Shown: positions 21,957 to 49,115 of the stretch, piece by piece
How positions within the stretch are numbered: the stretch's first letter is position 1
Layout of the letters: every line of letters starts with the position of its first letter
DNA from: an uncultured Crocinitomix sp.
GTDB lineage: Bacteria > Bacteroidota > Bacteroidia > Flavobacteriales_D > Crocinitomicaceae
NCBI GenBank assembly: GCA_905478225.1
Contig: CAJQHR010000015.1
Span: 1-49,120, forward strand
Length of the DNA stretch: 49,120 nt
Direction: 5' to 3'
Made by a program: the position numbers and the translations under genes
The notes under the pieces: model-generated
Databases searched by the model: none
What the model saw: the letters and a program-made list of their open reading frames with translations, nothing else
What the model was told of the DNA's origin: nothing

Positions 21957-24269
21957 TTATTTTAAAATTACGATTGGGAAATCCCGACCAAAACTATAAC
22001 CTGTGGGGTATTGCGGACTGCCGTGATACTCTTCTGAAAGTTCAGGAACCCGTTCTTCAACATAGGCCTTCAATTCACTCACGGTAATTTTCGTATCTCC
22101 ATCAATTCTCACAGTGCCTTGCAAAACTTCTAGCAAAGCATAGGTAAAAAGACCATGATTCAATTCCCCAACTTCATTAGCGAATTCGGCGTCCTGTGCG
22201 GCAGTTAAAAAGAAGGTGCCGGTATTACGCGCTAGTTGCGCTAAAGCCTTCTCTCGTTCGCTACCGCGCACCGCAAAAGACTCAATGGCGCCAACAGAAT
22301 GACAAGCATCTAAAATGAATAATTGTTTTTCGGCGATTATATTCTTAGAAATTTGCATTAAATCGCTAGCGAAAATAGCCTTTTCGCGGATAACTTCTGG
22401 CGTATAATACAAATTTGTCACATCATGTGTCACAATAAAAAACTCAGGTTCCTTCGGCGCAACTTCATTGCTCATAACCCCGAGACCTGCATAGTAGAAC
22501 ATAAACACGTCCTCGCTTCCAATTTCTCCTTTGATTTCAGCAATAGTTTCTAGAATATTTGCTTTTGTAGCCTTCGAATTCAAAAGACTATAGGTTTTTA
22601 CGCTATTAAACAAAGAGTCTGCGCCATCCTCTAAGCTTTTCACAATAGCTTTAGAGTCGTTTACTGCGTAATCTAAATTATAAGCCGGGTTCTTATATGA
22701 ATTAATGCCTATAGAAAGAATGTACAAGTCAGTTTTAGCAAGCTCACCGTTATATTCAACTATAACTGTAGTTGGTTCAGATTCGGTGCGCTCACTATTG
22801 ACAACAATACTTGTTAGTTCGTTAAGGCCATTTGACAAGGGCACTTCGTACAAGCGTTTATTCTTGCTTCCGCCTCTGAAAGTGATATTTTCCTCTAAAC
22901 TTTCTTGAATGACTAATTTGCCATTGTTATAGATTCGAATTTCATCTAATGGTGTTTCGTGTTCGCCAATTGAAATTTCTAAAGGAATAGTTATAGTTGC
23001 GGATGTAAAAACGGAATCACGATCAACAACTACACTTCGTTTTCCGCCACCCCCAATTGCCACTACTAGTTCTGGCAAATCACTCATTTGAGACTCTAAT
23101 AAGCCACTTCTATCGTTCAATCCTTTATCTTCATTATGGATCCGACCAATGAGGCCAGGAGTATAATACTTCTCGAATAAATTACTTACGTTAACCACCT
23201 GATTACCTTTTACATAATTAACCCATTGTAAAGCATTATATGAGCCATGAAAATAACCAGATGGATTCGTAGCTAACCACTCATCCTTACTCATTTGAAT
23301 CCGAGAAAACACCTCTTTAAAAGTATTTAAATCCCACACCTTCATTAATCCATCTACGCTCATTGAAATTAAGAATTGACCGTTGGTAGTTATGTCAATA
23401 CTTGTGACCGAGGAGGAATGACCAATTAATTTTGACACTACCTTATTGGTCTCAGGATCCCATAAAACAATTTGATTATCGGCTCCACCTGAAGCTACAA
23501 ACCTACTTTTAGGATCATACTTAATCGCATAAACATCACCTTGATGCAAATCCATTTTACCAACAAGCATACCCGTTAACAAGTTCCAAACTTTAACATT
23601 ACCATCCCAAGAACAAGTGACCATATTCTCTCCATTGGGGCTAAATGACATAGAATGAACTTTATCAAAAGGAATGGAGAGCAACGTATCATCCGTCGCC
23701 ATTGAGAGCACAACCGCACCTTCATACCCATTAACCGAAAGCGCTTTATCCTCGTCAAGATGAATTAAAGCTGGCTCGTTATGTGCCGAATATTCAGATT
23801 TCAGGCTAGCAACCTCATTGCCTGTAGCTATTTCCCAAATGTAAACTTCATCCCGATTGTCAATGGCATAAAAATATCTTCCTGTTGCACTATAATACGC
23901 CTTATACAAATCATTATTCTGAACATCAACGGAGAGCAATTGCTGCCCCGTTTCTACTTCAAAAACCTTCACCTTATTGTCAGCACCTAATGTGAGAATG
24001 GACTTTTGGTCAAGGCTAAACTCAACCGTTCTAATTCTTTCTGTATGACCAGAATAGGTCCTTATTTGCTTGCCGGACTTCAAATCCCACAACAGAACCA
24101 CATTATCAAAACCACCCGTTGCTATAAATTGATTATCTGGACTAAAGTCATAAGCCCGCACATAATCAGTATGCCCCTTTTGGAGCACAGTATCCAATGG
24201 GAAGTCTGTTTGAGCGGACACTCCTAAATGCGTAAGGAGCAATATTAGGGCAAAAAAGGCTATTTTCAT
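21957..24269 (-). CDS. exported WD40-caspase protein with catalytic His replaced by Leu
   Basis: A 770-residue protein with a signal peptide (MKIAFFALILLLTHLGVSAQ). Residues 28-330 hold about seven WD40 repeats (SPDNQFIATGGFDNVVLLWD, PNGENMVTCSWDGNVKVW, KSRFVASGGADNQIVLWD) forming a propeller. A linker with a beta-sandwich follows, and residues 510-770 form a caspase/metacaspase-like (C14) domain: LYILSIGINSYKNPAYNLDY, then FMFYYAGLGVM, then LFILDACHSVG. The Cys (Cys656) is present, but the His of the normal AGHG motif is Leu596 (codon CTC; His would be CAC). The dyad is thus broken, so it may be a non-proteolytic scaffold. The thioesterase gene follows 9 bases later. Confidence 0.85.
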   Translation of the reverse strand: MKIAFFALILLLTHLGVSAQTDFPLDTVLQKGHTDYVRAYDFSPDNQFIATGGFDNVVLLWDLKSGKQIRTYSGHTERIRTVEFSLDQKSILTLGADNKVKVFEVETGQQLLSVDVQNNDLYKAYYSATGRYFYAIDNRDEVYIWEIATGNEVASLKSEYSAHNEPALIHLDEDKALSVNGYEGAVVLSMATDDTLLSIPFDKVHSMSFSPNGENMVTCSWDGNVKVWNLLTGMLVGKMDLHQGDVYAIKYDPKSRFVASGGADNQIVLWDPETNKVVSKLIGHSSSVTSIDITTNGQFLISMSVDGLMKVWDLNTFKEVFSRIQMSKDEWLATNPSGYFHGSYNALQWVNYVKGNQVVNVSNLFEKYYTPGLIGRIHNEDKGLNDRSGLLESQMSDLPELVVAIGGGGKRSVVVDRDSVFTSATITIPLEISIGEHETPLDEIRIYNNGKLVIQESLEENITFRGGSKNKRLYEVPLSNGLNELTSIVVNSERTESEPTTVIVEYNGELAKTDLYILSIGINSYKNPAYNLDYAVNDSKAIVKSLEDGADSLFNSVKTYSLLNSKATKANILETIAEIKGEIGSEDVFMFYYAGLGVMSNEVAPKEPEFFIVTHDVTNLYYTPEVIREKAIFASDLMQISKNIIAEKQLFILDACHSVGAIESFAVRGSEREKALAQLARNTGTFFLTAAQDAEFANEVGELNHGLFTYALLEVLQGTVRIDGDTKITVSELKAYVEERVPELSEEYHGSPQYPTGYSFGRDFPIVILK

Positions 24270-33302: not shown

Positions 33303-35693
33303 TTACCGCAGCAATTGAATGGTTCCTTGCCCTTTGAATGATTCGCTCAAAAACGTTTCACCTGAATATTTATAGAAATAGACGCCTGCGTTCGCTGCGG
33401 TTCCGTTTTGCAAATCCCCATTCCAAACATCAGTAATGCTGTTGAATTCTGCCACAACACTCCCCCAACGATTGAGAATTATACATTCAAAAGATTCGAC
33501 TGAATGTGCATAATTTTGGAAAGTGAACCCATCATTTATTCCGTCATTATTTGGTGTAAAGATGTTGACAGATTCAAAAGCGAACGGCTCAAAGACTTCA
33601 ATTAACCTGCACAATGAATCACGGCAACCATTTTTATTAACTACGGTTAAACAAACCTCGTATTGACCGGGATTGTACGTTAGATCAAAAGTTTCAGAAA
33701 GATCATCACTCAATACATTTCCGCCAATTCCGAAATTCCAAATAAAGTTGGTATCGGCCGAGGGATTATTGGGGTTGGCAAAATTCTCAGACGTATTTAC
33801 AAAATTGACATCCAACGGAGAGTTTCCTTCCCAATCTGCCGAAAAACCTTCAGAGGTTAACTCAAAATTCGCAATAGGGTTTAAAGAATCTAATCGAATA
33901 TCTTGACTCAATTGGCAATCATTATCATCTGTCATGGTAATTCGATAGTTACCAGGATTAAGCCCGCCCCATGTTGTATTATCCGTTGTTTCTCCATTGT
34001 CTAAATTCTCCCACAAATAACCAAAATCCCCAACACCACCGGCACCTGAAGCAAAGACAACCCCATTCCCACTCTGATAACCGAACAAACGACAATATGC
34101 AGGAAATGATCCAAACTCACTAAAAAATAAAGAATCTGGATAGATCAACTCAAAGATTTCAGAAACAGAGCAGCCATTTTCATCATTAATGGTGATGTTG
34201 TATTCACCTGCACCAACATTTAATAAAGAGTCTTCCCCAATTCCATTGTCCCCACTTGGATTTGGAGTCCAAAAATAACTGACAACTGTTGGGTCGCCCG
34301 TAGCATTTTCAACATTTTCAACAAATGTAAAACCTGACTCATCTCCATAACATTGCGGATGAGAAATAACTAAGTCAAATGTCATCTGATCAGGGTCGTT
34401 AATAAATACCGAATCAATAATCTCACAAGGAAATTCATCCGAAACGTTAAAATAATACCAATCTTCCGATAACGAATTTGCGGTATTGCTATTATCCTCG
34501 TTAATAACAGTTCCATCTTCATTTGTGATGACGAAAGTAATATCACCAGTTGCATCAGTCACATTAATTGTAACCGAGCCATCTGAAAACCCAAAACAAG
34601 TAGGTGGATTAGAAGTTATTATTCCATCCAATAAACACTCACCGCTTGTTACTAAAATTGTGATACAATTCTCATCAATACAAGGATCTACACCAACTTC
34701 ATAACAAATTGTCCATGTACCAACACCTGCCGCACCTGGATCAAATTCACCCGAAACTGGATCAATACAACCTATGCAATCTGCAGACCAAGTTCCACCA
34801 TCAGGGGTTCCGGTTAAAACCTCGGTTGGATCCGTAATTAAATAAGGCCCCGCAGGATCAACAAAAGCAGCTTCAGCTGCAACCACAGTAACTGAAATCT
34901 CATCTGTAGCCGTACATTCTCCAGAAGTTGCTGTAACCGTATAGATAACCGTCCCAGGATCCTGTTCAAACCCAACGCCATCAATTACGCCATCACTCCA
35001 AGATAAATCAGCCCCGCCAGGATTATCGGCTTCTAAGACAATAAAAGTTCCTTCACAAACGACCACATCATCACCCGCATCTAATTCAGGTCCGTCGCTA
35101 CATGAAACTTGCAAATCATCAATGATCCAGCGTTCGCTCGCCGCCCAAGCTTGAACAGTAATTCTCAGCTGCAATTCAGAACCTCCGTCAATGCAACCGG
35201 TAGAATAATGCATAAATCCTCCGTCAATATCATCAGATTGAATGACTAGAACATCCGCACATGCTCCGGCGCAAAAAGTTGCATCCGCTGGATCAACCCA
35301 TCCTGCGCCATCAATATTATACTCCAAACGCACATAATCCACCGAATTGCATCCTGTGCCGCATGCTTCCATTGTTCCTTCCTCAAACAAATCAAATTCA
35401 ATCTCGATAAAATCACAGTCGCTGATATCAATCACCTCAGATTCGACCGTTGCGGGTCCATTCGTATCCTGCCCCACTAATTGATCGCCCTGTACTTTAA
35501 AAAAGTCACCTTCATCAATACACTCTGGGCAGTCTGTCACCCAGGTAATGCCACCTAGATCATCCGTTCCGGTAGTTGCATCCTCGGCTTCGTCAAACGC
35601 TTCATCAAAAACTAATTGAGAAAAACTCGGAAATGCAGCCCCAAAAATGACGGCAAAAAAGAAAAAGAGTTTAATAAAAGATGATTTCAACAT
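33303..35693 (-). CDS. large secreted T9SS type B protein with PKD-like domains
   Basis: A 796-residue exported protein, Asp/Glu/Gly/Cys-rich as usual for marine surface proteins. Signal peptide residues 1-26 (FGAAFPSFSQ). Residues 27-200 form a beta-sandwich with seven or more Cys and WIIDDLQVSC at its end. Then SprB-like/immunoglobulin-like repeats (TYTVTA-type strands, CFGFSDGSVTINVTDATGDI, CYGDESGFTFV), a PKD-like domain at about 635-710 (FIWNFGIGG, YEVCLTVVNKNGC) and a C-terminal gliding-motility-associated type B sorting domain (VNIFTPNNDGINDGFTF, ILNRWGSVV, AGVYFYKYS). It should be exported by T9SS and stay on the surface, perhaps as an adhesin. A TATCTTTG -7 box precedes it. Confidence 0.85.
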   Translation of the reverse strand: MLKSSFIKLFFFFAVIFGAAFPSFSQLVFDEAFDEAEDATTGTDDLGGITWVTDCPECIDEGDFFKVQGDQLVGQDTNGPATVESEVIDISDCDFIEIEFDLFEEGTMEACGTGCNSVDYVRLEYNIDGAGWVDPADATFCAGACADVLVIQSDDIDGGFMHYSTGCIDGGSELQLRITVQAWAASERWIIDDLQVSCSDGPELDAGDDVVVCEGTFIVLEADNPGGADLSWSDGVIDGVGFEQDPGTVIYTVTATSGECTATDEISVTVVAAEAAFVDPAGPYLITDPTEVLTGTPDGGTWSADCIGCIDPVSGEFDPGAAGVGTWTICYEVGVDPCIDENCITILVTSGECLLDGIITSNPPTCFGFSDGSVTINVTDATGDITFVITNEDGTVINEDNSNTANSLSEDWYYFNVSDEFPCEIIDSVFINDPDQMTFDLVISHPQCYGDESGFTFVENVENATGDPTVVSYFWTPNPSGDNGIGEDSLLNVGAGEYNITINDENGCSVSEIFELIYPDSLFFSEFGSFPAYCRLFGYQSGNGVVFASGAGGVGDFGYLWENLDNGETTDNTTWGGLNPGNYRITMTDDNDCQLSQDIRLDSLNPIANFELTSEGFSADWEGNSPLDVNFVNTSENFANPNNPSADTNFIWNFGIGGNVLSDDLSETFDLTYNPGQYEVCLTVVNKNGCRDSLCRLIEVFEPFAFESVNIFTPNNDGINDGFTFQNYAHSVESFECIILNRWGSVVAEFNSITDVWNGDLQNGTAANAGVYFYKYSGETFLSESFKGQGTIQLLR

Positions 35694-36078: not shown

Positions 36079-36912
36079 TTAGTCTGATACTAACTGATTC
36101 TTTTCTTGTGCGGCTTTAGCCATAAACTTTTCAGTCTTCTTTACCACATTTACCGGTAATTTTCTTTTGGATTTTGGAAAAAAGAAGAAATGCTTGATAA
36201 AGGAAGGCTCCTCTATTCCGTTTATATTGTAAAACGAATCGAGATAATTGTTAAATGTAATGCGATCATTCTTCGATTGCGCCAAAGCTTCCTCTGTGAT
36301 ATCAACCAATTCAAAAGTGACCTCCCGTTTTGGAGCAAGGAAAATAAGATTAGCGAAGAAGTAAAAAAATCCTTTTAAAAACACGGGTAAAAATGGAGGC
36401 TGTTCTCCTGTCCATGCTTTTGAAAATGTAGAACCCCAAAGACCCGTGATTCGCACGCCGATAATTCTAATTTTATCATCTTCTAAACTAGATATCACGG
36501 CATGAGTGGCCTGTTTATTTCTGACATGCTCTACCCCAATATCCTGTAATTGACCTGCAGGGAAAATGATTACAGATTTCCCTTCATCTAAGGCTATATT
36601 CACCTTGGAGAAAATGTTTTTAAGCACATTTGGATCACGATTTCCTTTTTTGAAATTAGCTACCGGAATTGCTCCCCAACGCTTTAAAAAGAAGCTAATA
36701 AATGGAATTTTAAAAAAATTCTCATTGACAACGGGTACTATATGTGTGTACTTGTAAAAGAAAACACCTACAAGCTGTGGATCAACGTGTGACTGATGAT
36801 TTGGCAAAACCAATTTACCGCCCTCCTTCTGCAAAAGCTCCATTCCTTTGAACGAAATTCTGTATCTCCTCCTTAGAATAAAACCATAGAAGATCCTATA
36901 AAACTTCATCAT
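36079..36912 (-). CDS. 1-acyl-glycerol-3-phosphate acyltransferase-like protein
   Basis: A 277-residue PlsC-type acyltransferase. Block I is NHQSHVDP with His39 and Asp44; block III, usually FPEG, is FPAGQLQD, a variant found in acyltransferases related to Aas and other acyl-ACP-linked enzymes. The N-terminus is basic (FILRRRYRISFKG) and a hydrophobic stretch at about 180-200 (FFYFFANLIFLA) could sit in the membrane. It lies 23 bases downstream of the acyl-CoA ligase gene, same strand, so the two probably work in sequence: activate a fatty acid, then attach it to a glycerolipid or another acceptor. The acceptor is not predictable. Confidence 0.8.
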   Translation of the reverse strand: MMKFYRIFYGFILRRRYRISFKGMELLQKEGGKLVLPNHQSHVDPQLVGVFFYKYTHIVPVVNENFFKIPFISFFLKRWGAIPVANFKKGNRDPNVLKNIFSKVNIALDEGKSVIIFPAGQLQDIGVEHVRNKQATHAVISSLEDDKIRIIGVRITGLWGSTFSKAWTGEQPPFLPVFLKGFFYFFANLIFLAPKREVTFELVDITEEALAQSKNDRITFNNYLDSFYNINGIEEPSFIKHFFFFPKSKRKLPVNVVKKTEKFMAKAAQEKNQLVSD

Positions 36913-36935: not shown

Positions 36936-38735
36936 TTATTTATCTACTGAACTCTCCACCTCATGATTGAAAATTTCGGCAATAATACCTTTGTATTTTT
37001 CTGCCAGCACTCTTCTTTTAAGCTTGAGTGTAGGCGATAAATCTCCATTTTCAGGTGTCCATTCATCAGCAACCAGTCTAAATCGCTTTAATTGCTCGTC
37101 TTTCGATACTTTTGGATTGATTTCTTTAACAACAGCATTATAGAGCGCCTTGACCTCCTCATTCGCCAACATAGCTTTCTTGTCTGATCGGTCAATGCCT
37201 TTTTCTTTGCACCACGTATCCAAAGCCTCAAAATTTGGTGAAATAATCGCCGAAGCAAATTTTTCACCCTCCCCAATCGCCATAAGTTGGTCAATGTAAA
37301 CGGATTCTTTGAACGCATTTTCAACGACTTGCGGTGAAACATATTTTCCGTTGGATAATTTAAAAATTTCTTTCTTTCTGTCAGTAATTCGTAAAAATTT
37401 GCCTTGATCTAACACTCCGATATCTCCTGTATGAAACCAACCTTCCGAATCAATAGCCGCCTTGGTCGCTTCCTCGTTGTCGTAATATCCGATCATTACA
37501 TTGTGACCTTTACACAAGATTTCTCCGTCAGGTGCAATTTTAATATCCACCCCTTCTATTCCCGCGCCAACTGAACCTAGCTGAACTAAGGGAGAAGTCG
37601 CTCTATTAATCGTTATGATTGGAGACGTTTCGGTCAAGCCATACATATTGAGCAATCTTATTTTCGCTGACCAGAATACTTTCTCTAGGCGAGGTTGCAA
37701 AGCTGCACCACCTACTCCAATTGAGATAACGTTGCCGCCCATGGCTTCTCTCCACTTGCTAAAAATGATTTTATTGGCAATTGCCAACTTCATTTCATAC
37801 CAGGCGCCATTCTTTTTATCTATTTCGTATTCAAGCCCCAAATCCAAGGCCCAGAAAAACAATTTCTTTTTAACACCAGTTAGTTTTTCACCTTTGCTAA
37901 TAATTTTGTCGTACACTTTTTCAAGAATCCGCGGAACCGCCCCGAATCCATGCGGCTTAACATCTTTTAAATCATCCGCTATGGTTCCTAAATTCTGGGC
38001 ATAATAAATACTACAGCCTGAATATTGTGTTTGATAATTTCCCATTCGTTCACCAACATGACAAATTGGGAGGATGCCTAAATACCTGTGGTTTGATTGT
38101 AATTTAAATACACCCGCAGCTACCTTTGCATTGTTTACTAAATTTTTATGCGACAACATCACCCCTTTCGGAGTTCCCGTTGTTCCTGAGGTATAAATTA
38201 ACGTTACCCAATCTTCTTCTGTAATTCCTTTTTTAATTTCTTCTACTTCGGCAGCATGTTTGTTCGCATTTGCTTCGCCTAATTCAAGTACTTCTTTCCA
38301 ACTCGAAACACCCTCAACTTCATCAAATGCATAAATCTTTTCAAGGGTTGAAATTTCAGCAACAAGTGGTAAAATTTTATTGGCAATTGCCTGATCAGAA
38401 ATGAATACACATTTCACCTTTGAATGGGTTAAAATGTCACGATATCCGTCTGCACTTAGCGTGGTAAAAATTGGAACATGTACAATTCCTAATTGCGCCA
38501 TTCCCATATCCACGAAATTCCATTCTGGCCGATTATTGGTGATTGTGGCGATTTTATCATCTGAATTATAACCTAACTCCTTTAATCCGTAACTTATATT
38601 GTTCGAATTTTTGATATACTCATGGGAGCTGTATTTCACCCATTGTTTATTGACTTTGCCCGCTAAGGCATCATCTTTATCAAGGAATTTTTCTTTATAA
38701 CGTTGAAGAAAATCAAATGTTCTTTTTACTTCCAT
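36936..38735 (-). CDS. long-chain acyl-CoA synthetase (AMP-forming)
   Basis: A 599-residue adenylate-forming ligase of the FadD15/ACSL type. The ATP loop is YTSGTTGTPKGVMLSH at residues 181-196; the later motifs MYGLTETSP, GWFHTGDIG, DRKKEIFKLSNGKYVSP are complete. The length and the FKLSNGKYVSPQ motif are those of long-chain acyl-CoA ligases. It converts fatty acids with ATP and CoA to acyl-CoA. It is transcribed with the acyltransferase gene downstream. A TACATTTG -7 box (38765-38758) precedes the start by about 22 bases. The PKS and PPTase lie upstream on the same strand, so its substrate might be the PKS product; this is inference. Confidence 0.9.
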   Translation of the reverse strand: MEVKRTFDFLQRYKEKFLDKDDALAGKVNKQWVKYSSHEYIKNSNNISYGLKELGYNSDDKIATITNNRPEWNFVDMGMAQLGIVHVPIFTTLSADGYRDILTHSKVKCVFISDQAIANKILPLVAEISTLEKIYAFDEVEGVSSWKEVLELGEANANKHAAEVEEIKKGITEEDWVTLIYTSGTTGTPKGVMLSHKNLVNNAKVAAGVFKLQSNHRYLGILPICHVGERMGNYQTQYSGCSIYYAQNLGTIADDLKDVKPHGFGAVPRILEKVYDKIISKGEKLTGVKKKLFFWALDLGLEYEIDKKNGAWYEMKLAIANKIIFSKWREAMGGNVISIGVGGAALQPRLEKVFWSAKIRLLNMYGLTETSPIITINRATSPLVQLGSVGAGIEGVDIKIAPDGEILCKGHNVMIGYYDNEEATKAAIDSEGWFHTGDIGVLDQGKFLRITDRKKEIFKLSNGKYVSPQVVENAFKESVYIDQLMAIGEGEKFASAIISPNFEALDTWCKEKGIDRSDKKAMLANEEVKALYNAVVKEINPKVSKDEQLKRFRLVADEWTPENGDLSPTLKLKRRVLAEKYKGIIAEIFNHEVESSVDK

Positions 38736-40688: not shown

Positions 40689-43600
40689 TTAATCTAGAAC
40701 TGCTTCTTTCAATTCTTCAGTTACAATCTCCAATAAATCTTCCTTATTATCTCTACAGAATAAGTGTCCACCAGGAACAACCTTGAACTTAAATTCAGAG
40801 TTGGTATGTTGATCCCATCCTTGAACCTGATCAACGGTAAATACATTATCATCTGCTCCTGCGAATGCCGTTAGTGGGCAATTCAACGGTTCATCTTCAA
40901 TATATTTATATTTCTTACCTAATAAGATATCAGCTCTAAGTGCAGGAAGCATTTCATTGAACACCGCATCATTGTCGATTACCGCATCTGGAATCTCTAA
41001 CGAACGTAGGTGACCTTTGATATTCGGAATATTCTTTTCCTTGTACACTTCATCATCAGCAATTGCTTCTAAGAATTTAAACGGACTCACTAAATGCGGA
41101 GCTCTCCATCCACCAACCATAAATTTGGTTGGTTGAACGTCTAATTCTCTATTCAAATGTCTGGTTAATTCTAAAGCAACACCTGCTCCTGAACTGTGAC
41201 TGTAGAATGCACATGGAGTAGTTAATAATGGCTCCATAACCTCTGCCATTTTAGCCACTAAGTCTGCAACATCATCATACGCTCTTTCATCACCTCTTTC
41301 CTCTCTACCTGGGAATTGGATTGCACATACCTCAATATCGTCTGGCAAAAACTCGTGCCAAGTTGAGAAGATAGATGCTCCACCCGCGAAGTAAGGAAGA
41401 CAGAATAATCTTAATCTAGGGCTATCTACTTTCTTATAACGAATGACCCATTTATCTAATTCAGATTTAGCTTCACCTTCCATTAATCCAGCTCCGCCTG
41501 CACCGTTCAACTCATCAAGAATCTGCTCGGTCATCTCTTCCATAGTTGGTCCTCTCATGATTTTCATCATTGAGTAATCAATACTTACGTTAGATTGCAC
41601 CCAGTTTCTAATTTGATTCGCCATCAAGGAATCCAGTCCATATTTCGTTACAGGCTCAGCCGTATCCACTTTTTCAGATGTTGTACCCAATACTCTCGCA
41701 AAGGTGTCTTTCAACTGATCTAAGAAGATTTCAGTTTGTTCCTCCGGTTTAGATTCCAGTAATGTTGCTTTTAAAGCGCCATCTCCAGTTCCTGCTCCAG
41801 ACCCTGCGTTTAAGTCTCCTTCAGTCACTAAGTGAGCAAAACGACTTGACTTAGCAGTATGCGGATAGAATCCACCAATTGTTTCCCAATCAGAATCTGT
41901 TCCAACTCTTTGAATTGGATTATTTAATAACATTTGTTCTAAGATCCAACATGCTTGATGGATAGAGAACGTTTTCCATCCTTGTTTATAAAGAAGATCT
42001 ATAACAACTCCATTTTCTTCGACATTTCTTGCTACGAATCCAACATCTCCAATTACACCCCAATTCACAGTTGTTGCCGGTAAGCCTTGAGCCCTCCTCC
42101 AATGAGAGAAGTTGTCTAGGAAACTATTTGCACCAACATAACTTACTTGACCTGGATTACCGTATATGGCAGAGATAGATGAATAAGATAAGAAATGATC
42201 TAAATCCATATCCTTCGTTGCCTCATGCAGCATCCAACAACCAACGGCCTTTGGATTAAACACTTTCATGTACTTATCATAATCAATTTCTGGAATAGAA
42301 ACATCATCTAAAACCATGGCTGCGTGCTGAATTCCTTTAATCGGAGGCATTGTATCTGCCACTTCTTTAAAGATTCTGTCAACGTCTGCTTGGTCGTTTA
42401 CACTTCCTTTAGCAATCATAACGTTCACGTCGTCATCTTCCATGCTCTTAACAATAGCTCTTTCAAAGTCAGTTTTAACACCACTTCTACTCATTAGAAC
42501 TAAGTTTCTCGCCCCTTTAGTTGTCATCCACTGAGCTACCGATAATCCAAATCCTGAAGCTCCACCAGTTAATAGGTAAGTTCCGTCTGCTTTGAATTTA
42601 ATCTCAGTTGCTGGAGCGATATCTACTTCGCCTTCCATTGCTACTATTACTTTACCAATGTGTCTTGCTCCACCCATGAATTGGAATGCATCCGCTAGTT
42701 TACCTATCGGGAATGTCGTTACTGGGTGGGGCTTGAATTTATTTTCAACGAAGTAATCAATTGATTCTTGGAATAATTTACCTCCGAAACCTTTCTTTTG
42801 CTCAAACAATCTGTCAACATCCACACCGAAGTAGGTTAAGTTGTTTCCAAATGGTTGAAGCCCTAATTTAGAGTTTCGATAAATATCTGTTTTACCAATT
42901 TCAATAAATCGACCATATGCGGCTAAACATCTCACCGATTTAAAAATAGCTTCTCCCGAAAGTGAATTCAACACTACGTCTACACCTCTCCCATTGGTTT
43001 TCTCCATGATTTCATCAGCAAAATCTAATGTTCTGGAGTTCATGATGTTTTCAGGTTTAACACCTAAACTGATAATGTGATCTCTTTTGACTTGTGTACT
43101 TACAGTTGCGTATATCTCAGCTCCTACCGCATTTGCGATATTTATTGCAGCGATTCCTACACCACCTGCTGCTGCATGAATCAATACCGTTTCACCAGCC
43201 TCTAGTCTACAGTGATGGATTAAAGAGAAGTAAGCTGTGGTATATACTACCGGTAAACTTGCTGCTTCATGCCAGTTAATGTTCGCTGGTTTCTTCACAC
43301 AGTGAACCCCATAAGCATAAGCAAAGCCACCTAAACAAGAAGGTGCAGTTGCCATCACTTCGTCACCAACTTTAACGTTAGTCACATCAGCTCCTACTTT
43401 AGTAATTATACCAGCACATTCTAGTCCGAATGTTTTACCGAATAATCCACCGTTTACAGCTTCATCAGATAAAAGACCCATTGCAATCATGATATCTCTA
43501 AAGTTTAGAGCAGATGCTTTAATTTGAATCTCAACTTGATTAGCTTCTGGTGTTCTTCTTTCGCTTTCTCTTAATACAACATTATCTAGTACTCCGAATT

Positions 43601-46600
43601 CTTCAATTGTACCAGTATAAGCAGAACCTTCAGCAGGAACAGACTTCATAGCTTGTTTCGCTATGTTATCCATTGATAATCTTTCTAACTTATTAATGTA
43701 TCTTCTTCTTCCTCTAAATGCGATCTCATCCGTTTTATCACCGGCGAACATTTCGTCTACCAATACTTCGATTTCAACATCTTGAACTGGTGAACTTAAA
43801 TCAACAACCGTAGTTGCGTAATTAGGGAACTCATTTACGATAACTCTTGCAACACCTCTTAATCCTTCTTGACCAAGATTTAAAAATTCAGGTGATCCAG
43901 CAACAGTTTGTGATCCACTCAATACAACCCAAATACTAGGATTTACTTTGAAAGAGGTGGTGTTCAGTTTTCTCATGATGTTCATCATCATAATACTTCC
44001 TAAACCTTCCGCTTGTTCAATAGATTCTGCAGTAAGATCTTCATTACTTACTAAATCAATTCCCCAACCAAATACAATCCCCTCTAGTTTACCACTTGAA
44101 TTAACATGATCGATCACTTTATCACAATCTTCTTGTGACATGGCGCCCACCTCAAATTCAGTATCTGAAATTTGTTTAAATTCAGAGCCAATAGTAACAT
44201 TGATAGATGCCTTATTCAAATCACCTAACTGTGCAGCTAGTTTATCTGTAACTCCTTTATGATCACCAAATATTAAGTAATCAGCAACAGCTGTTTTAGT
44301 TTCGTTAACAACAACCTTATCCGTAAAGTCAATTTTCTCAGCTCTCGCCATGATAATTGATTGACAAGAAATTGAGTTATCAGGAACATCACTAAAGTAA
44401 GCCGTGTTATTATATCCGTTATCTGTCAATACTTTCTCCCACATTTCAGGAGCCATAGTGGCATGTTCAGTTCTGAAATCTTCAAATAACCACCATCCTT
44501 CAGTCATACCAAAGATGAAATCTAGATATACCGGCGAGTTAGTCACCTCTAACATCATCAACACACCTTCAGAAGCTAATAATTTTCTAGCATTTCCTAA
44601 AGAAACACTTAAGTCTCTTGTAGCGTGAATCACATCAGATGCAATGATTAAATCAAATGAGTTCAAATCAACACCTTGTTCAGCTGGATCTTGTTCGATA
44701 TCCATAATTTTGTACTGTACAAAAGGATATTTAGCAAAACGCTGTTGTGCTTTGATCATGAACATGTGAGATAAATCTGTAAAGACATACTCTGTTCGAT
44801 CAGCCGGTAACATTGGAAGAATAGCTTGTGTCATACCTCCTGTGCCCGCACCAATTTCTAACACTCTGATTGTTTGATCTGCCGGGATGTTCTTAATCAA
44901 TTCTGCAATTGATCGCCCAGCAATATCGTTATATTTCTTAAATGCGAATCCTTCAACATAATATTGAACAATAGCATCCCACTTATCTTCTGGGAAGATT
45001 AATTGAATTGGATCAACAGTTCCTTGCAATACACCTGTAATTTCTGGTCCACATCTGCCTAATAAAGTAGATTCGTGGTGAAATTGACGATATCTGCTAT
45101 TCAAACTCTCCATCCAAGCTCTCAAATCCTTGAAGTCTGGTTTCTTAACCACTTCATAATTTGAACCTGCGCCTTTAAGAATACCTCCTATTTGAATTAG
45201 CTTGAACATGTGATAGAACAAACGTTTCTGAACTTCAATTACCTCAAAATCTTTATAAAGTTGATCTACATCAATTTTAGTTCCTGCCTCAAAAGACATT
45301 CCCATTTCTTGCAGCGACTCACAGATATACGCCAATGTTAAATCATATTGTTCCGGCTCGTAATCATTATAGTATTCTTTTTGAACTCCTCTCGCATTTA
45401 CTTCATCAATTGTCTCTTGAACTCCAGGTCTCAATGTTTCAGGATCTGGAAGGTATTCCCCTGGATTTCTCAATAACTCTTGATCAGCCCGCGACTTCAT
45501 GTTCCAGTTATACTCATAGAACCATCTATCAGCTTCTCCGCCAGACTCACCTCTAGAACCTTTTAAGTACTGAGATTTAAATCCGTGGAATTCGGCCACT
45601 AAACTGCCATCAGCATTGAAGATCCATAATTCACCAACTGCATATTCATCCGTCCATTCTCTTAATGTTCCATGTACAAATAACTTAGTTGAGTTTACAT
45701 CACCATGCCATTTGATTCTATCAATGTGACGCGGTACATATACTCCCATTTTTTTAGAATGATCTTCTCTCTCGTTAAAGATTCCGAAAACTGTTTGAAA
45801 ACAGCTATCTAATACACCTGGGTGAATGTTAAACTGGAAAAATTCTGATTTTACACTTTCGTGAACATCAATTTCACTCAAAGACTCCCAGTTCCCATCA
45901 CTTCTCCAAAGATTTGTGATTCCTCTAAAGCTTGGCCCTAAATAAAGACCACTCTCTAAAAGTTCATCATGCATTGGTTTAACTGCGACAGGAATAGTAA
46001 TTCTTTTCTTGATCGCTTCTAAGTCTACTGGTTTAGCAACGAACTTATCTGAGATATGATTAATCTTTCCGTTTGAGCACATGGTCCATTGCTCATCTCT
46101 ACCTTTTGGTTTGGTATAAATAAAATAATCTCCACTATCATGCGAAATGTCAATTTGAATGTGCGGCGGTTCACCATTATCTGGCAAGAACAAGGCATTA
46201 TCAAAGTTTACATCTTCAATAAACCCAAAGTTTTCTCCAAAAGATGCTTTGGCAGCACCAATCATCAAATCTACGTGACCAGCACCCGGGAAAACAATTG
46301 GCCCTTGCACTTTATGATCTTCAATATACGGGTATGTTCTTTTATCTAAGTCTACTTCCCAAAGAATATTATTACTCTCACGAGCAGAAACTGCTTTTCT
46401 TTTCAAGTGCGGATGCTCATACTGTAGAGAACCTAAACGCAATCTCTTTCCTTCATCACTCTCTAACCAATACGTATCTTTTTGCCATGGATATGCTGGA
46501 AGTTTCACAAAGTTATTGTCATCTCCGTAAAATGCTTTCCAATCTATTTTCACACCCCAAGCGTGTAACTTAGCTGCATTTGATAAGAATGTTCTTTTCT

Positions 46601-49115
46601 CGTCTTCTTTTCTTCTAATGGATCCTATCGATAATCCTTTTTTCTTGTTAATTTCCAATAAAGCTTGCACTCCGATTGCATGAATTGGGTGCGGCCCTAG
46701 TTCAATGAACGTATCAAAACCATCTTTTATTTGCGCATCAATAGCATCTGTAAACAATACCGCTTCTCTTACATTTTGGAACCAGTACATTGGATTCAAA
46801 TCTTCTCCTTTAACAATTCCACCTTTTACAGTAGAATAAAAAGGAATATCAGTTGCCTTTGTTTTGAACTCACCAAGCGAAGTCAATAATTCCTCTTTAA
46901 GCGGCTCCATGTGATGCGAATGGAAAGGTACTCTTACCACTAATAGTTTGTGGAAAATATCTTTTGAATCACAATCCGCAGCAATTTCTTCTATTAGATC
47001 AGTATCTCCAGATAAAGCCACCATTTCTGGTCCGTTAACTGCACCAATAGAAACTCTATCTTCTTTTCCTTTAATTAATTCTTTAGCAACTTCATGAGAA
47101 ATTCCCACGGCCAACATTTTACCTTTATCAGTTGCTTTAAATTGAACTCTAGATCTATTGAAGATTAATAGCACGGCTTGTTCTAAAGTTAAAGCTCCAG
47201 AAACATATCCTGCTGCAACTTCACCAATACTATGCCCAACAACAGCTTTAGGATAAACACCCATTGCTTTCCACATTTCATACAATGCAATCTGAATTGC
47301 AAAAATGGCAGGTTGTGCTATGTTTGTTTCACTAATTCTTGACGTTTCTTCATCTTTCGATAACTCCTTGATTAATGACCAATCTGCATGAACCAATAGC
47401 ATTTGTTCAAGCTTCTCAATTTGTTCTCTAAATAATGGTTCATCAGCAAGTAGCTGTCTACCCATCGCAAACCATTGAGGTCCTTGACCTGAGAATATAA
47501 ATACAATCTTATCTTTTTCTTCAAGCGCTCTTCCATCAGCTATTTCATTTAATGTTTCACCATTTAAATAAACCTGAAGGCTTTCTGATAATTCTTCTTT
47601 AGATTCTGCAACAACAGATAATCTGAAATCATGAGCGGTATTTCTAACAGCTGTTGAATAACAGATATCACTAAACGTCGCTTTATTGTCTTTATCCTTT
47701 AACCAATTAATGTATGATTGTGTCATTTCTTGCAAAGCATCAAGATTTCTTGTTGAGATATTACAAACTTGCAATCCTTTTTTATCGTGAGATGCAGGTG
47801 CCTGACCGTTTTGTTTATGTCCTTGTAATACGACGTGTACGTTAGATCCTCCAAAACCAAATGAATTCACTCCCGCAAACGCGTCTTCTCCACTTTTTGA
47901 AGGCCAAGGATGTGCATCGACAGGTACTTTTAATTTTAGATCCTCAAACGGAATATTTCGATTTCCATTTTTAAAATGGATGTTTGGAGGAATAGTTCTA
48001 TGCTTCATTCCTAAAAGCAACTTGCTAATTCCTGCAATACCCGAAGCTGGTTCAAGGTGACCAATATTAGACTTAATAGATCCGATAAAACAATCATTCT
48101 TTCTATCCGTACCAATTACTTTACCAATTGAATTTGTTTCAATCGGGTCACCTACAAATGTTCCAGTTCCATGCGCCTCAACATACTGGACAGCATGCGG
48201 ATCTACTTGAGCATCAATATAAGCATCTCTTAATAAAGCTTGTTGTGCAAGCGGATTTGGAACAGAAATACCTTTCGTTGCGCCATCTTGATTCACAGCA
48301 GAACCACGAATTACACCATAAATGCTATCGCCATCAGCCTCAGCTTGTGATAATGGTTTTAATAAAACCAAACCAGCACCTTCACTTCTTATATATCCGT
48401 TTCCTCTTTCATCAAAAGAAAAACAGGTTCCGTCAGGAGAAAGGAATCCACCTTTACTGAATCCCATTTGAGGTTCAGGCTTTAAAATTGAATTTACTCC
48501 ACCGGCAAATGCAGCAGTTGCATCCCCTTCCCAAATAGCACGACAGGCCATATGAACAGCATTCAACGAAGACGAACAAGCCGTATCAATAGCAAATGAA
48601 GGTCCTTTTAAATCGTACGAATATGAAATTCTGTTTGCGTTTATACAAAGTGCTGCACCAACGTTGGTATGCGACCCAATATTTACACGTTCTTCATATG
48701 AATTTTGAAGATCACCATAATCATGCGCAGAAATCCCAATAAATACAGCTGTTTTTGAGTCTTTTAAATCATTAAGACTTAAACCTGCATCTTGAACAGC
48801 TTCATAAGACACTTCCAACAGCATCCTTTGTTGCGGGTCCATTCTTTTGGCTTCTAAGGGAGAAATTCCAAAAAAAGCCGCATCAAATTTATCGATCTCT
48901 TTAATGAAGCCTCCGCGGTTCACACTAATTTTTCCAGCTCTTCTCCATACAGGCGCATACAACGCATCAACATCCCAACGATCAGCTGGAATTGGCCCCA
49001 AGGCATCTTTTTTATCACAAATCAACTTCCAAAATTCCTCTGGTGAATTCACATTTCCAGGAAATCTACATCCCATTCCAATAATTGCGATAGGTTCCTT
49101 TAATTCTTTTTTCAT
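40689..49115 (-). CDS. single-module reducing polyketide/fatty acid megasynthase, KS-AT-DH-MT-ER-KR-ACP-TE
   Basis: A 2808-residue iterative-type synthase, complete from KELKEPIAIIGMGCRFPG to its stop. KS about 7-425 with Cys180 (DTACSSSL), His315 (VEAHGTGT), His353 (NIGHLEPASG). AT 535-850 with Ser629 (GHSIGE) and His732 (VPFHSHHM; malonyl-type pattern). DH 905-1190 with His934 (HKVQGPIVFP) and Asp1103 (LDSCFQ). MT about 1400-1590 with LEIGAGTGG at 1419-1427. A structural KR-like region 1600-1825, ER 1830-2165 (HAAAGGVG near 1980), KR 2180-2385 (Ser2313, Tyr2326, Asn2330), ACP with Ser2496 (GLDSLM), TE 2558-2805 with Ser2641 (SHSSGAG) and His2784. All domains keep their active residues, so a fully reduced, optionally methylated chain released by the TE is expected. 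The PPTase follows. Confidence 0.92.
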   Translation of the reverse strand: MKKELKEPIAIIGMGCRFPGNVNSPEEFWKLICDKKDALGPIPADRWDVDALYAPVWRRAGKISVNRGGFIKEIDKFDAAFFGISPLEAKRMDPQQRMLLEVSYEAVQDAGLSLNDLKDSKTAVFIGISAHDYGDLQNSYEERVNIGSHTNVGAALCINANRISYSYDLKGPSFAIDTACSSSLNAVHMACRAIWEGDATAAFAGGVNSILKPEPQMGFSKGGFLSPDGTCFSFDERGNGYIRSEGAGLVLLKPLSQAEADGDSIYGVIRGSAVNQDGATKGISVPNPLAQQALLRDAYIDAQVDPHAVQYVEAHGTGTFVGDPIETNSIGKVIGTDRKNDCFIGSIKSNIGHLEPASGIAGISKLLLGMKHRTIPPNIHFKNGNRNIPFEDLKLKVPVDAHPWPSKSGEDAFAGVNSFGFGGSNVHVVLQGHKQNGQAPASHDKKGLQVCNISTRNLDALQEMTQSYINWLKDKDNKATFSDICYSTAVRNTAHDFRLSVVAESKEELSESLQVYLNGETLNEIADGRALEEKDKIVFIFSGQGPQWFAMGRQLLADEPLFREQIEKLEQMLLVHADWSLIKELSKDEETSRISETNIAQPAIFAIQIALYEMWKAMGVYPKAVVGHSIGEVAAGYVSGALTLEQAVLLIFNRSRVQFKATDKGKMLAVGISHEVAKELIKGKEDRVSIGAVNGPEMVALSGDTDLIEEIAADCDSKDIFHKLLVVRVPFHSHHMEPLKEELLTSLGEFKTKATDIPFYSTVKGGIVKGEDLNPMYWFQNVREAVLFTDAIDAQIKDGFDTFIELGPHPIHAIGVQALLEINKKKGLSIGSIRRKEDEKRTFLSNAAKLHAWGVKIDWKAFYGDDNNFVKLPAYPWQKDTYWLESDEGKRLRLGSLQYEHPHLKRKAVSARESNNILWEVDLDKRTYPYIEDHKVQGPIVFPGAGHVDLMIGAAKASFGENFGFIEDVNFDNALFLPDNGEPPHIQIDISHDSGDYFIYTKPKGRDEQWTMCSNGKINHISDKFVAKPVDLEAIKKRITIPVAVKPMHDELLESGLYLGPSFRGITNLWRSDGNWESLSEIDVHESVKSEFFQFNIHPGVLDSCFQTVFGIFNEREDHSKKMGVYVPRHIDRIKWHGDVNSTKLFVHGTLREWTDEYAVGELWIFNADGSLVAEFHGFKSQYLKGSRGESGGEADRWFYEYNWNMKSRADQELLRNPGEYLPDPETLRPGVQETIDEVNARGVQKEYYNDYEPEQYDLTLAYICESLQEMGMSFEAGTKIDVDQLYKDFEVIEVQKRLFYHMFKLIQIGGILKGAGSNYEVVKKPDFKDLRAWMESLNSRYRQFHHESTLLGRCGPEITGVLQGTVDPIQLIFPEDKWDAIVQYYVEGFAFKKYNDIAGRSIAELIKNIPADQTIRVLEIGAGTGGMTQAILPMLPADRTEYVFTDLSHMFMIKAQQRFAKYPFVQYKIMDIEQDPAEQGVDLNSFDLIIASDVIHATRDLSVSLGNARKLLASEGVLMMLEVTNSPVYLDFIFGMTEGWWLFEDFRTEHATMAPEMWEKVLTDNGYNNTAYFSDVPDNSISCQSIIMARAEKIDFTDKVVVNETKTAVADYLIFGDHKGVTDKLAAQLGDLNKASINVTIGSEFKQISDTEFEVGAMSQEDCDKVIDHVNSSGKLEGIVFGWGIDLVSNEDLTAESIEQAEGLGSIMMMNIMRKLNTTSFKVNPSIWVVLSGSQTVAGSPEFLNLGQEGLRGVARVIVNEFPNYATTVVDLSSPVQDVEIEVLVDEMFAGDKTDEIAFRGRRRYINKLERLSMDNIAKQAMKSVPAEGSAYTGTIEEFGVLDNVVLRESERRTPEANQVEIQIKASALNFRDIMIAMGLLSDEAVNGGLFGKTFGLECAGIITKVGADVTNVKVGDEVMATAPSCLGGFAYAYGVHCVKKPANINWHEAASLPVVYTTAYFSLIHHCRLEAGETVLIHAAAGGVGIAAINIANAVGAEIYATVSTQVKRDHIISLGVKPENIMNSRTLDFADEIMEKTNGRGVDVVLNSLSGEAIFKSVRCLAAYGRFIEIGKTDIYRNSKLGLQPFGNNLTYFGVDVDRLFEQKKGFGGKLFQESIDYFVENKFKPHPVTTFPIGKLADAFQFMGGARHIGKVIVAMEGEVDIAPATEIKFKADGTYLLTGGASGFGLSVAQWMTTKGARNLVLMSRSGVKTDFERAIVKSMEDDDVNVMIAKGSVNDQADVDRIFKEVADTMPPIKGIQHAAMVLDDVSIPEIDYDKYMKVFNPKAVGCWMLHEATKDMDLDHFLSYSSISAIYGNPGQVSYVGANSFLDNFSHWRRAQGLPATTVNWGVIGDVGFVARNVEENGVVIDLLYKQGWKTFSIHQACWILEQMLLNNPIQRVGTDSDWETIGGFYPHTAKSSRFAHLVTEGDLNAGSGAGTGDGALKATLLESKPEEQTEIFLDQLKDTFARVLGTTSEKVDTAEPVTKYGLDSLMANQIRNWVQSNVSIDYSMMKIMRGPTMEEMTEQILDELNGAGGAGLMEGEAKSELDKWVIRYKKVDSPRLRLFCLPYFAGGASIFSTWHEFLPDDIEVCAIQFPGREERGDERAYDDVADLVAKMAEVMEPLLTTPCAFYSHSSGAGVALELTRHLNRELDVQPTKFMVGGWRAPHLVSPFKFLEAIADDEVYKEKNIPNIKGHLRSLEIPDAVIDNDAVFNEMLPALRADILLGKKYKYIEDEPLNCPLTAFAGADDNVFTVDQVQGWDQHTNSEFKFKVVPGGHLFCRDNKEDLLEIVTEELKEAVLD

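What the first reader, a model, noticed from the sequence alone, without database searches (positions are those of the whole stretch)
40689..49115. Bacterial megasynthase with the exact domain order of animal fatty acid synthase, all domains apparently active
Seen: one polypeptide KS-AT-DH-MT-ER-KR-ACP-TE with intact catalytic residues in every domain. Known: this order defines metazoan FAS (where the MT is dead) and, without TE, fungal highly reducing iterative PKS; bacterial PKS are usually multi-module or lack this full set in one module. Inference: a free-standing iterative synthase in a Flavobacteriia-type organism making a reduced, methyl-branched acid, possibly a new lipid or secondary-metabolite scaffold, with relevance for the origin of animal-type FAS/PKS.
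Basis: partly seen in the sequence, partly recalled or inferred. Interest (0 to 1): 0.85.

Follow-up and report, generated by a model that had tools for sequence, protein, structure and literature searches.

The report
Bacterial one-protein branched-fatty-acid synthase
A bacterium of the Bacteroidota carries one giant protein whose parts lie in the same order as in the animal fat-making enzyme, but with a methyl-adding part that looks functional; it belongs to a small family known so far from uncultured bacteria, probably makes branched fatty acids, and its nearest relatives appear to be other bacterial enzymes rather than ours.

Summary
In detail: ORF 40689-49115(-), 2808 aa, reads KS-AT-DH-MT-psiKR-ER-KR-ACP-TE with intact catalytic motifs. 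The contig ends 5 nt before the ATG, but 15 of 15 relatives with upstream sequence have an in-frame stop within 46 codons of the same start, so the gene is free-standing. It is a patchy Bacteroidota family: 23 of 24 loci at 60-93% identity, all MAGs. A phosphopantetheinyl transferase gene follows in 18 of 22 loci; a fatty-acid-ligase-like gene lies near in 11 of 22. Best reading, inferred: an iterative synthase of alpha-methyl-branched saturated acids, released by its RifR-like TE. The animal-FAS tie is weak: the family groups with MT-less synthases of Persicobacteraceae, while animal FAS groups with bacterial WcbR/RkpA-like, SgaA-like and Thioclava synthases (KS 99/98; ER-KR only 77/79), which carry an altered, probably dead MT. 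Family+FAS is rejected in one of four trees, marginally (AU p 0.047; otherwise 0.055-0.167). Monomodular bacterial lipid PKSs (Sup, Swf, WcbR, SgaA) are known; this is a new variant. A Sup relationship could not be tested.

The parts
40689..49115 (-). 2808-aa monomodular type I PKS/FAS-like synthase gene
   Evidence: start supported by relatives
47622..49097 (-). KS with C-terminal extension (residues 7-498)
   Evidence: Pfam PF00109, PF02801, PF16197; Cys and both His motifs
46551..47504 (-). AT (538-855), GHSIGE and xxFH motif, malonyl type predicted
   Evidence: Pfam PF00698; motif; rule for the xAFH motif read in PMC3908369
45564..46415 (-). DH, double hot-dog (901-1184)
   Evidence: Pfam PF21089, PF14765; His and Asp motifs
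44340..45353 (-). C-methyltransferase (1255-1592), SAM motif and His/Glu motifs intact
   Evidence: CurJ 240 bits; Pfam PF08242, PF13489
43749..44276 (-). structural pseudo-KR (1614-1789)
   Evidence: Pfam PF21394, 26.1 bits against a cut-off of 26.9
42642..43544 (-). ER (1858-2158)
   Evidence: Pfam PF08240, PF00107, PF13602; NADPH motif
42051..42584 (-). KR (2178-2355), LDD motif
   Evidence: Pfam PF08659; motifs
41526..41720 (-). ACP (2466-2530), GLDSL
   Evidence: Pfam PF00550
40719..41411 (-). thioesterase (2569-2799), type II (RifR) like
   Evidence: Pfam PF00975; RifR 124 bits
39888..40640 (-). phosphopantetheinyl transferase gene, 49 nt after the PKS stop
   Evidence: Pfam PF01648, PF22624; a cluster member follows the PKS in 18 of 22 loci
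36936..38735 (-). AMP-binding, fatty-acid-ligase-like enzyme
   Evidence: Pfam PF00501; NCBIfam fatty-acid ligase models hit but below cut-off; cluster member nearby in 11 of 22 loci
36079..36912 (-). PlsC-like acyltransferase
   Evidence: Pfam PF01553; cluster of 7 members

Best explanation
A free-standing, iterative, highly reducing type I synthase that builds a saturated acid with alpha-methyl branches. SHOWN from sequence: one module with motif-intact KS, AT, DH, MT, ER, KR, ACP and TE, a PPTase gene next door, and separate FabF genes in the same genome. INFERRED: the PPTase primes the ACP; the AT loads malonyl (xxFH motif); the KS extends repeatedly; in at least some rounds the MT adds a SAM-derived methyl to the beta-keto intermediate; KR, DH and ER reduce it; the RifR-like TE frees the acid; the ligase-like neighbour activates it and a PlsC-, GNAT- or LpxL-like acyltransferase places it in a membrane or outer lipid. 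Chain length, number of methyls and the final lipid are not predicted.
For: Domains and motifs. Same length and start in relatives from several Bacteroidota orders by record title. PPTase cluster member next door in 18 of 22 loci, ligase-like in 11 of 22; acyltransferase-like clusters of 7, 5 and 3 members. The MT aligns with CurJ, a C-methyltransferase, including the VIHAT and LE motifs. The TE aligns with RifR over its Ser, Asp and His motifs. Two FabF genes above cut-off elsewhere in the genome, so ordinary fatty acids have their own KS. Sister synthases in Persicobacter and Aureibacter lack the MT but keep the rest, and Aureibacter has an annotated PPTase gene next door. A monomodular bacterial iterative PKS cluster, SgaAB, is reported to make sphingolipids (PMC12134224, abstract passage and one section).
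Against: No product, no expression, no structure. Iteration cannot be read from sequence. The ligase-like gene is not seen in 11 of 22 loci (some of these hold under 3 kb downstream) and the PPTase in 4 of 22 (L018, L023, L025, L034); the loci are not independent (L023/L025 and L029/L030 are near-twins). The nearest named relative, L018 (93%), has no adjacent PPTase in its 1.7 kb downstream. In the window the ligase-like gene lies 1.95 kb from the PKS stop with an opposite-strand ORF between, so co-transcription is not assured. The GNAT-like label rests on one weak Pfam hit (L029); L032 gave none. RifR-like thioesterases often edit stalled chains (recalled), so the TE could proofread rather than release.
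Confidence: 0.6

Rival explanations
1. Secondary-metabolite enzyme: a partly reduced, methylated polyketide is made, with MT, DH and ER used only in some rounds as in fungal HR-PKS, and released as a signal or antibiotic rather than as a membrane lipid.
For: Domain set equals that of fungal HR-PKS plus TE. Patchy presence: long matches of 70% or more in 6 of 200 genomes of the family sample, matches in 3 of 299 of the order sample, and only the window itself among 395 of the phylum sample.
Against: The conserved neighbours found are lipid-type (ligase-like, PlsC, LpxL-like); no other conserved cluster was found, though most singleton neighbours were not annotated.
Confidence: 0.25
2. Bacteroidota arm of the Sup family (sponge symbiont ubiquitous PKS), already proposed to make mid-chain-branched fatty acids.
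For: Sup enzymes are small monomodular PKSs proposed for mid-chain-branched acids (PMC4245539, passages).
Against: No Sup sequence was at hand, so neither homology nor shared neighbours could be tested.
Confidence: 0.15
3. Direct bacterial sister of animal FAS, so that the shared order reflects common descent.
For: Identical order including psi-KR. In blastp the human FAS KS scores the family (305 bits for the window, up to 311) not far below the best bacterial row (335). Pig FAS ranks fourth among solved structures for ER-KR (287 bits; MAS 341). The AU test does not reject family+FAS in the first KS tree (p 0.167) nor in the ER-KR trees (p 0.076; p 0.055).
Against: In both KS trees FAS groups with the WcbR/SgaA-like rows (97/91; 99/98); the AU test rejects family+FAS marginally in the tree (p 0.047). 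Among solved structures MT and TE are nearest other enzymes.
Confidence: 0.07

Closest known systems
Persicobacteraceae synthases (Persicobacter psychrovividus, Aureibacter tunicatorum plasmids)
   Same: Sister group in the KS tree and the ER-KR trees; KS-AT-DH-ER-KR-ACP-TE in one protein; PPTase annotated next door in Aureibacter
   Different: No MT; 42-44% identity; function unknown; listed only as an SDR family oxidoreductase, or not at all in this gene table
PfSgaA of Pseudomonas fluorescens MYb115 (sphingolipid iterative type I PKS)
   Same: Monomodular bacterial synthase feeding lipid synthesis (PMC12134224)
   Different: Chain is taken by a serine palmitoyltransferase (SgaB); the SgaA-like row L093 has an altered MT-like stretch and no room for a TE; no such neighbour in 25 family targets
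WcbR/RkpA-type capsule synthases
   Same: Monomodular, KS-AT-DH-(MT-like)-ER-KR-ACP
   Different: Capsule neighbourhood, altered MT, no TE, other KS clade
Swf and Sup of sponge symbionts
   Same: Monomodular type I PKS/FAS; Sup proposed for methyl-branched acids (PMC3908369, PMC4245539)
   Different: SwfA has no MT or TE and carries HATGT and DPQ(I/V)R (PMC3908369); here EAHGTGT and DPQQR. Sup sequences not compared
Mycocerosic acid synthase (MAS)
   Same: Best solved-structure hit over the whole chain, 993 bits; makes methyl-branched lipids (recalled)
   Different: Branches from methylmalonyl-CoA, no MT (recalled); separate KS branch
Animal FAS
   Same: Domain order including the psi-KR
   Different: Inactive MT in FAS (PMC10764717, passage), different TE type, separate KS and ER-KR position, not firmly resolved
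LovB-type fungal HR-PKS
   Same: KS-AT-DH-MT-(ER)-KR-ACP with active MT (recalled)
   Different: ER of LovB inactive and no TE (recalled); KS 337 bits and MT 105 bits only

Membership tests
Animal type I FAS | KS-AT-DH-MT-psiKR-ER-KR-ACP-TE order in one chain | tested here: met
   (order in FAS recalled)
Animal type I FAS | catalytically dead MT | tested here: not met
   SAM motif and His/Glu motifs intact and conserved; activity itself not assayed
Animal type I FAS | KS groups with animal FAS | tested here: inconclusive
   FAS groups elsewhere (97/91; 99/98); AU p 0.167 and 0.047
Animal type I FAS | TE nearest the FAS TE | tested here: not met
   nearest RifR; of 14 hits the only FAS-named one is the separate medium-chain thioesterase
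Fungal HR-PKS | KS in the LovB lineage | tested here: not met
   separate branches; the larger grouping that holds both has only 80/87
Bacterial monomodular iterative type I PKS | single complete module, free-standing gene | tested here: met
Bacterial monomodular iterative type I PKS | iterative use of the module | not testable with these tools
   needs enzyme assay
Swf (SwfA) | HATGT and DPQ(I/V)R KS motifs | tested here: not met
   EAHGTGT and MDPQQR in the window protein
Sup (SupA) | KS homology to SupA | not tested
   no Sup sequence available here
WcbR/RkpA | KS clade and capsule gene neighbourhood | tested here: not met
   other KS clade; four neighbours of the Paraburkholderia gene give no hit in the window and 24 loci, while three of the four hit Caballeronia as control
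SgaA | adjacent alpha-oxoamine synthase (SPT-like) | tested here: not met
   two such proteins give no hit in 25 targets; controls hit. The window's own upstream side is not held
PTM-like monomodular PKS | KS-AT-DH-KR-ACP-C-A-PCP-TE | tested here: not met
   no C or A domain among the 25 of 29 Pfam families shown, and no room left for them

The most novel reading that the evidence does not exclude
Free-standing bacterial lipid synthases are the stock from which animal FAS arose. Within that stock this family keeps the older state, an active MT, while the branch holding WcbR/RkpA-like, SgaA-like and Thioclava enzymes had already lost MT activity. The dead MT of animal FAS would then be inherited from a bacterial ancestor, not lost in animals. 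The published view that it may derive from the active MT of fungal type I PKS (PMC10764717, passage) is the alternative.
Probability: 0.25. Interest if true: 0.88.

Novelty: new variant of a known kind. Interest (0 to 1): 0.55.

Why it matters
If right, it adds a family of one-protein synthases with a working methyltransferase and a built-in release domain to Bacteroidota, and offers a compact tool for making branched fatty acids. The comparison it prompted also turned up bacterial enzymes that share both the domain slot and an altered, probably dead MT with animal FAS, which makes the origin of that enzyme directly testable.

Tried and rejected
Contig-edge artefact or fragment of a multimodular gene: rejected, because 15 of 15 relatives with sequence upstream of the start have an in-frame stop 0-46 codons before the matched start and 14 near-full-length frames begin with a short leader before the KS. 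Foreign island in this genome: not supported by composition, GC 0.381 against 0.365 for the rest of the window. Pks2, Pks13 or PfaA equivalogs: below the NCBIfam cut-offs. A first AU test on the ER-KR tree (p 0.014) is discarded, because one family row, L038, was left out of the named group; the corrected run gives p 0.076. In that corrected run L034, L041 and the 8g7w row were also dropped. For the KS tree, 8 of 85 rows were skipped as redundant; 2 further short rows, L024 and L037, were never used; the bootstrap of that tree had not settled. The tree used 36 of those 85 rows, 5 of the 17 family rows among them, plus four new ones; the tree used 18 rows. The structure job for the GNAT-like neighbour was still unfinished at my last look, and a second job for the MT domain was not accepted because the machine was busy, so no structure or fold search supports anything here. 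The GNAT-like neighbour is not found in the window's own genome. The library lacks most subscription papers, so absence is weak.

Full report
WHAT IS THERE. The ORF at 40689-49115 on the minus strand starts with ATG and codes for 2808 aa. Pfam finds KS, AT, DH, methyltransferase, a structural pseudo-KR (just below its curated cut-off), ER, KR, ACP and thioesterase in that order. Every catalytic motif that I checked in the window protein is intact, and the key residues are conserved in the 16 aligned family rows except in L034 and at one ambiguous TE base in L020 (L024 lacks the start of the KS).

IS THE GENE WHOLE. The contig ends at 49120, five bases beyond the ATG, so a lost upstream module had to be considered. 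In 15 of 15 relatives with sequence upstream, an in-frame stop lies 0-46 codons before the matched start; the 14 near-full-length frames begin with a short leader before the KS. The gene is free-standing.

HOW WIDESPREAD. A peptide-pattern scan of 84,980 species genomes gave 24 loci; 23 are Bacteroidota at 60-93% identity (best segment) and one is a Rhodospirillaceae at 43%. All 24 record titles begin with MAG, so no cultured owner of the MT-bearing form was found; the scan uses six peptides and is not exhaustive. In whole-genome samples, long matches of 70% or more occur in 6 of 200 genomes of the same family (window included), matches at E 1e-200 or better in 3 of 299 of the order, and in 395 genomes of the phylum only the window itself passes 38% identity. 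The distribution is patchy.

NEIGHBOURS. A member of the window's phosphopantetheinyl transferase cluster follows the PKS in 18 of the 22 loci whose 3' end and some downstream DNA are held; a member of the ligase-like cluster lies within 3 kb in 11 of 22. PlsC-like, GNAT-like and LpxL-like clusters have 7, 5 and 3 members; the GNAT label rests on one weak hit. Misses for the PPTase are L018, L023, L025 and L034. The loci are not independent. The window genome has a second PPTase gene elsewhere and two FabF genes above cut-off, so ordinary fatty acids have their own KS.

WHAT IT PROBABLY DOES. Inference from the above: an iterative, reducing, methylating synthase of branched acids, primed by its PPTase, released by its TE, activated by the ligase-like enzyme and esterified. 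Among solved structures the MT is nearest CurJ (240 bits; LovB 105 bits) and the TE nearest the type II thioesterase RifR (124 bits), matching its Ser, Asp and His motifs. The AT motif VPFH fits a malonyl enzyme by the rule cited in PMC3908369. Iteration, chain length and the final lipid are not shown.

WHERE IT SITS. In a KS tree of 77 rows the family (17 rows) is one clade (100/100), sister to Persicobacter and Aureibacter (97/86), with Deinococcus (91/72) and then Rhodospirillaceae and Paenibacillus rows (96/88) next. Those Persicobacteraceae proteins are KS-AT-DH-ER-KR-ACP-TE without MT. ER-KR trees agree on the sister group (97/75, 100/97 and 98/99). In the KS tree the order among family, Persicobacteraceae and Deinococcus is unresolved (89/93 for the three together).

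THE ANIMAL FAS QUESTION. Animal FAS does not join the family in any tree. In the KS tree it joins a WcbR/RkpA-like row of Paraburkholderia and an SgaA-like row of Pseudomonas (97/91). With Caballeronia and Thioclava added, the six rows form a clade at 99/98; that clade and the family's own clade lie together with LovB and Pks16 at 80/87. In ER-KR the FAS grouping has 94/78, 96/73 or 77/79, which is weak. The AU test against family+FAS gives p 0.167 (KS), 0.047 (KS), 0.076 and 0.055 (ER-KR); against family+Persicobacteraceae+FAS it gives 0.39 and 0.22. So the data lean against a direct tie but do not close it; animal FAS has a long branch, and only two KS and one ER-KR sequence of it were used. 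A search of 72,556 plasmid records with the human KS hit 350 records; Burkholderiales, Thioclava and Deinococcus rows are near the top. For ER-KR, pig FAS ranks fourth among solved structures (287 bits) behind three MAS entries, a point in favour of some closeness.

A SIDE RESULT. The four bacterial rows that group with FAS (L092, L093, L098, L099), and Deinococcus L073, carry an MT-like stretch between DH and ER in which the SAM motif is altered in 5 of 5 (L098 least so) and the catalytic histidine is missing in 4 of 5; Thioclava L099 has a histidine at that column but a stretch about 220 residues shorter. Gloeocapsa L091, aligned with some of them, keeps both motifs. This resembles the inactive MT of animal FAS. 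That these stretches are dead is inference. The labels WcbR/RkpA-like and SgaA-like rest on gene neighbourhood and on recalled knowledge, not on a direct comparison with the named proteins.

WHAT IS KNOWN. Monomodular bacterial type I PKS/FAS are in print: Swf and WcbR/RkpA (PMC3908369, first two of five parts and passages read), Sup, proposed for mid-chain-branched acids (PMC4245539, passages; PMC9864124, passages), and SgaAB, reported to make sphingolipids (PMC12134224, one section and passages). A metagenome survey reports an uncharacterised monomodular KS clade, but of PTM-like layout (PMC10308959, one section and passages). The animal FAS and AFPK survey (PMC10764717, passages) calls the origin of animal FAS unclear, and says its inactive MT may derive from the active MT of fungal type I PKS, which is the rival of my novel case. 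I found no paper on the present family in the listings named under Tried and rejected.

VERDICT. Observation confirmed; interpretation partly supported; a new variant of a known kind.

Noticed in passing
L092, L093, L098, L099 (KS tree) and L073: Bacterial WcbR/RkpA-like, SgaA-like and Thioclava synthases group with animal FAS in the KS tree (99/98) and, like Deinococcus L073, carry an MT-like stretch with an altered SAM motif; the catalytic His is missing in 4 of these 5.
   Followed up: partly
L034:1371-8789: A copy of the family with an open frame of 2472 aa but KS DTAGSSA, HGAGN, altered KR motif and no ACP or TE found downstream: a decayed or repurposed synthase, or an assembly error.
   Followed up: partly
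window 21957-24269 (-): 770-aa protein with WD40 repeats and a caspase-like (Peptidase C14) domain.
   Followed up: no
L029, L030, L032, L038, L040: Conserved protein of about 390 aa, weakly GNAT-like, of unknown role near the PKS; a 41% paralogue lies elsewhere in genome G146.
   Followed up: partly
L041:9950-20588: Rhodospirillaceae relative whose TE is a separate gene, with two related ORFs of 542-544 aa on the other strand between synthase and TE, and further PKS matches upstream on the contig.
   Followed up: no
window 33303-35693 (-): Protein with a type IX secretion (CHU_C) signal domain close to the PKS locus.
   Followed up: no
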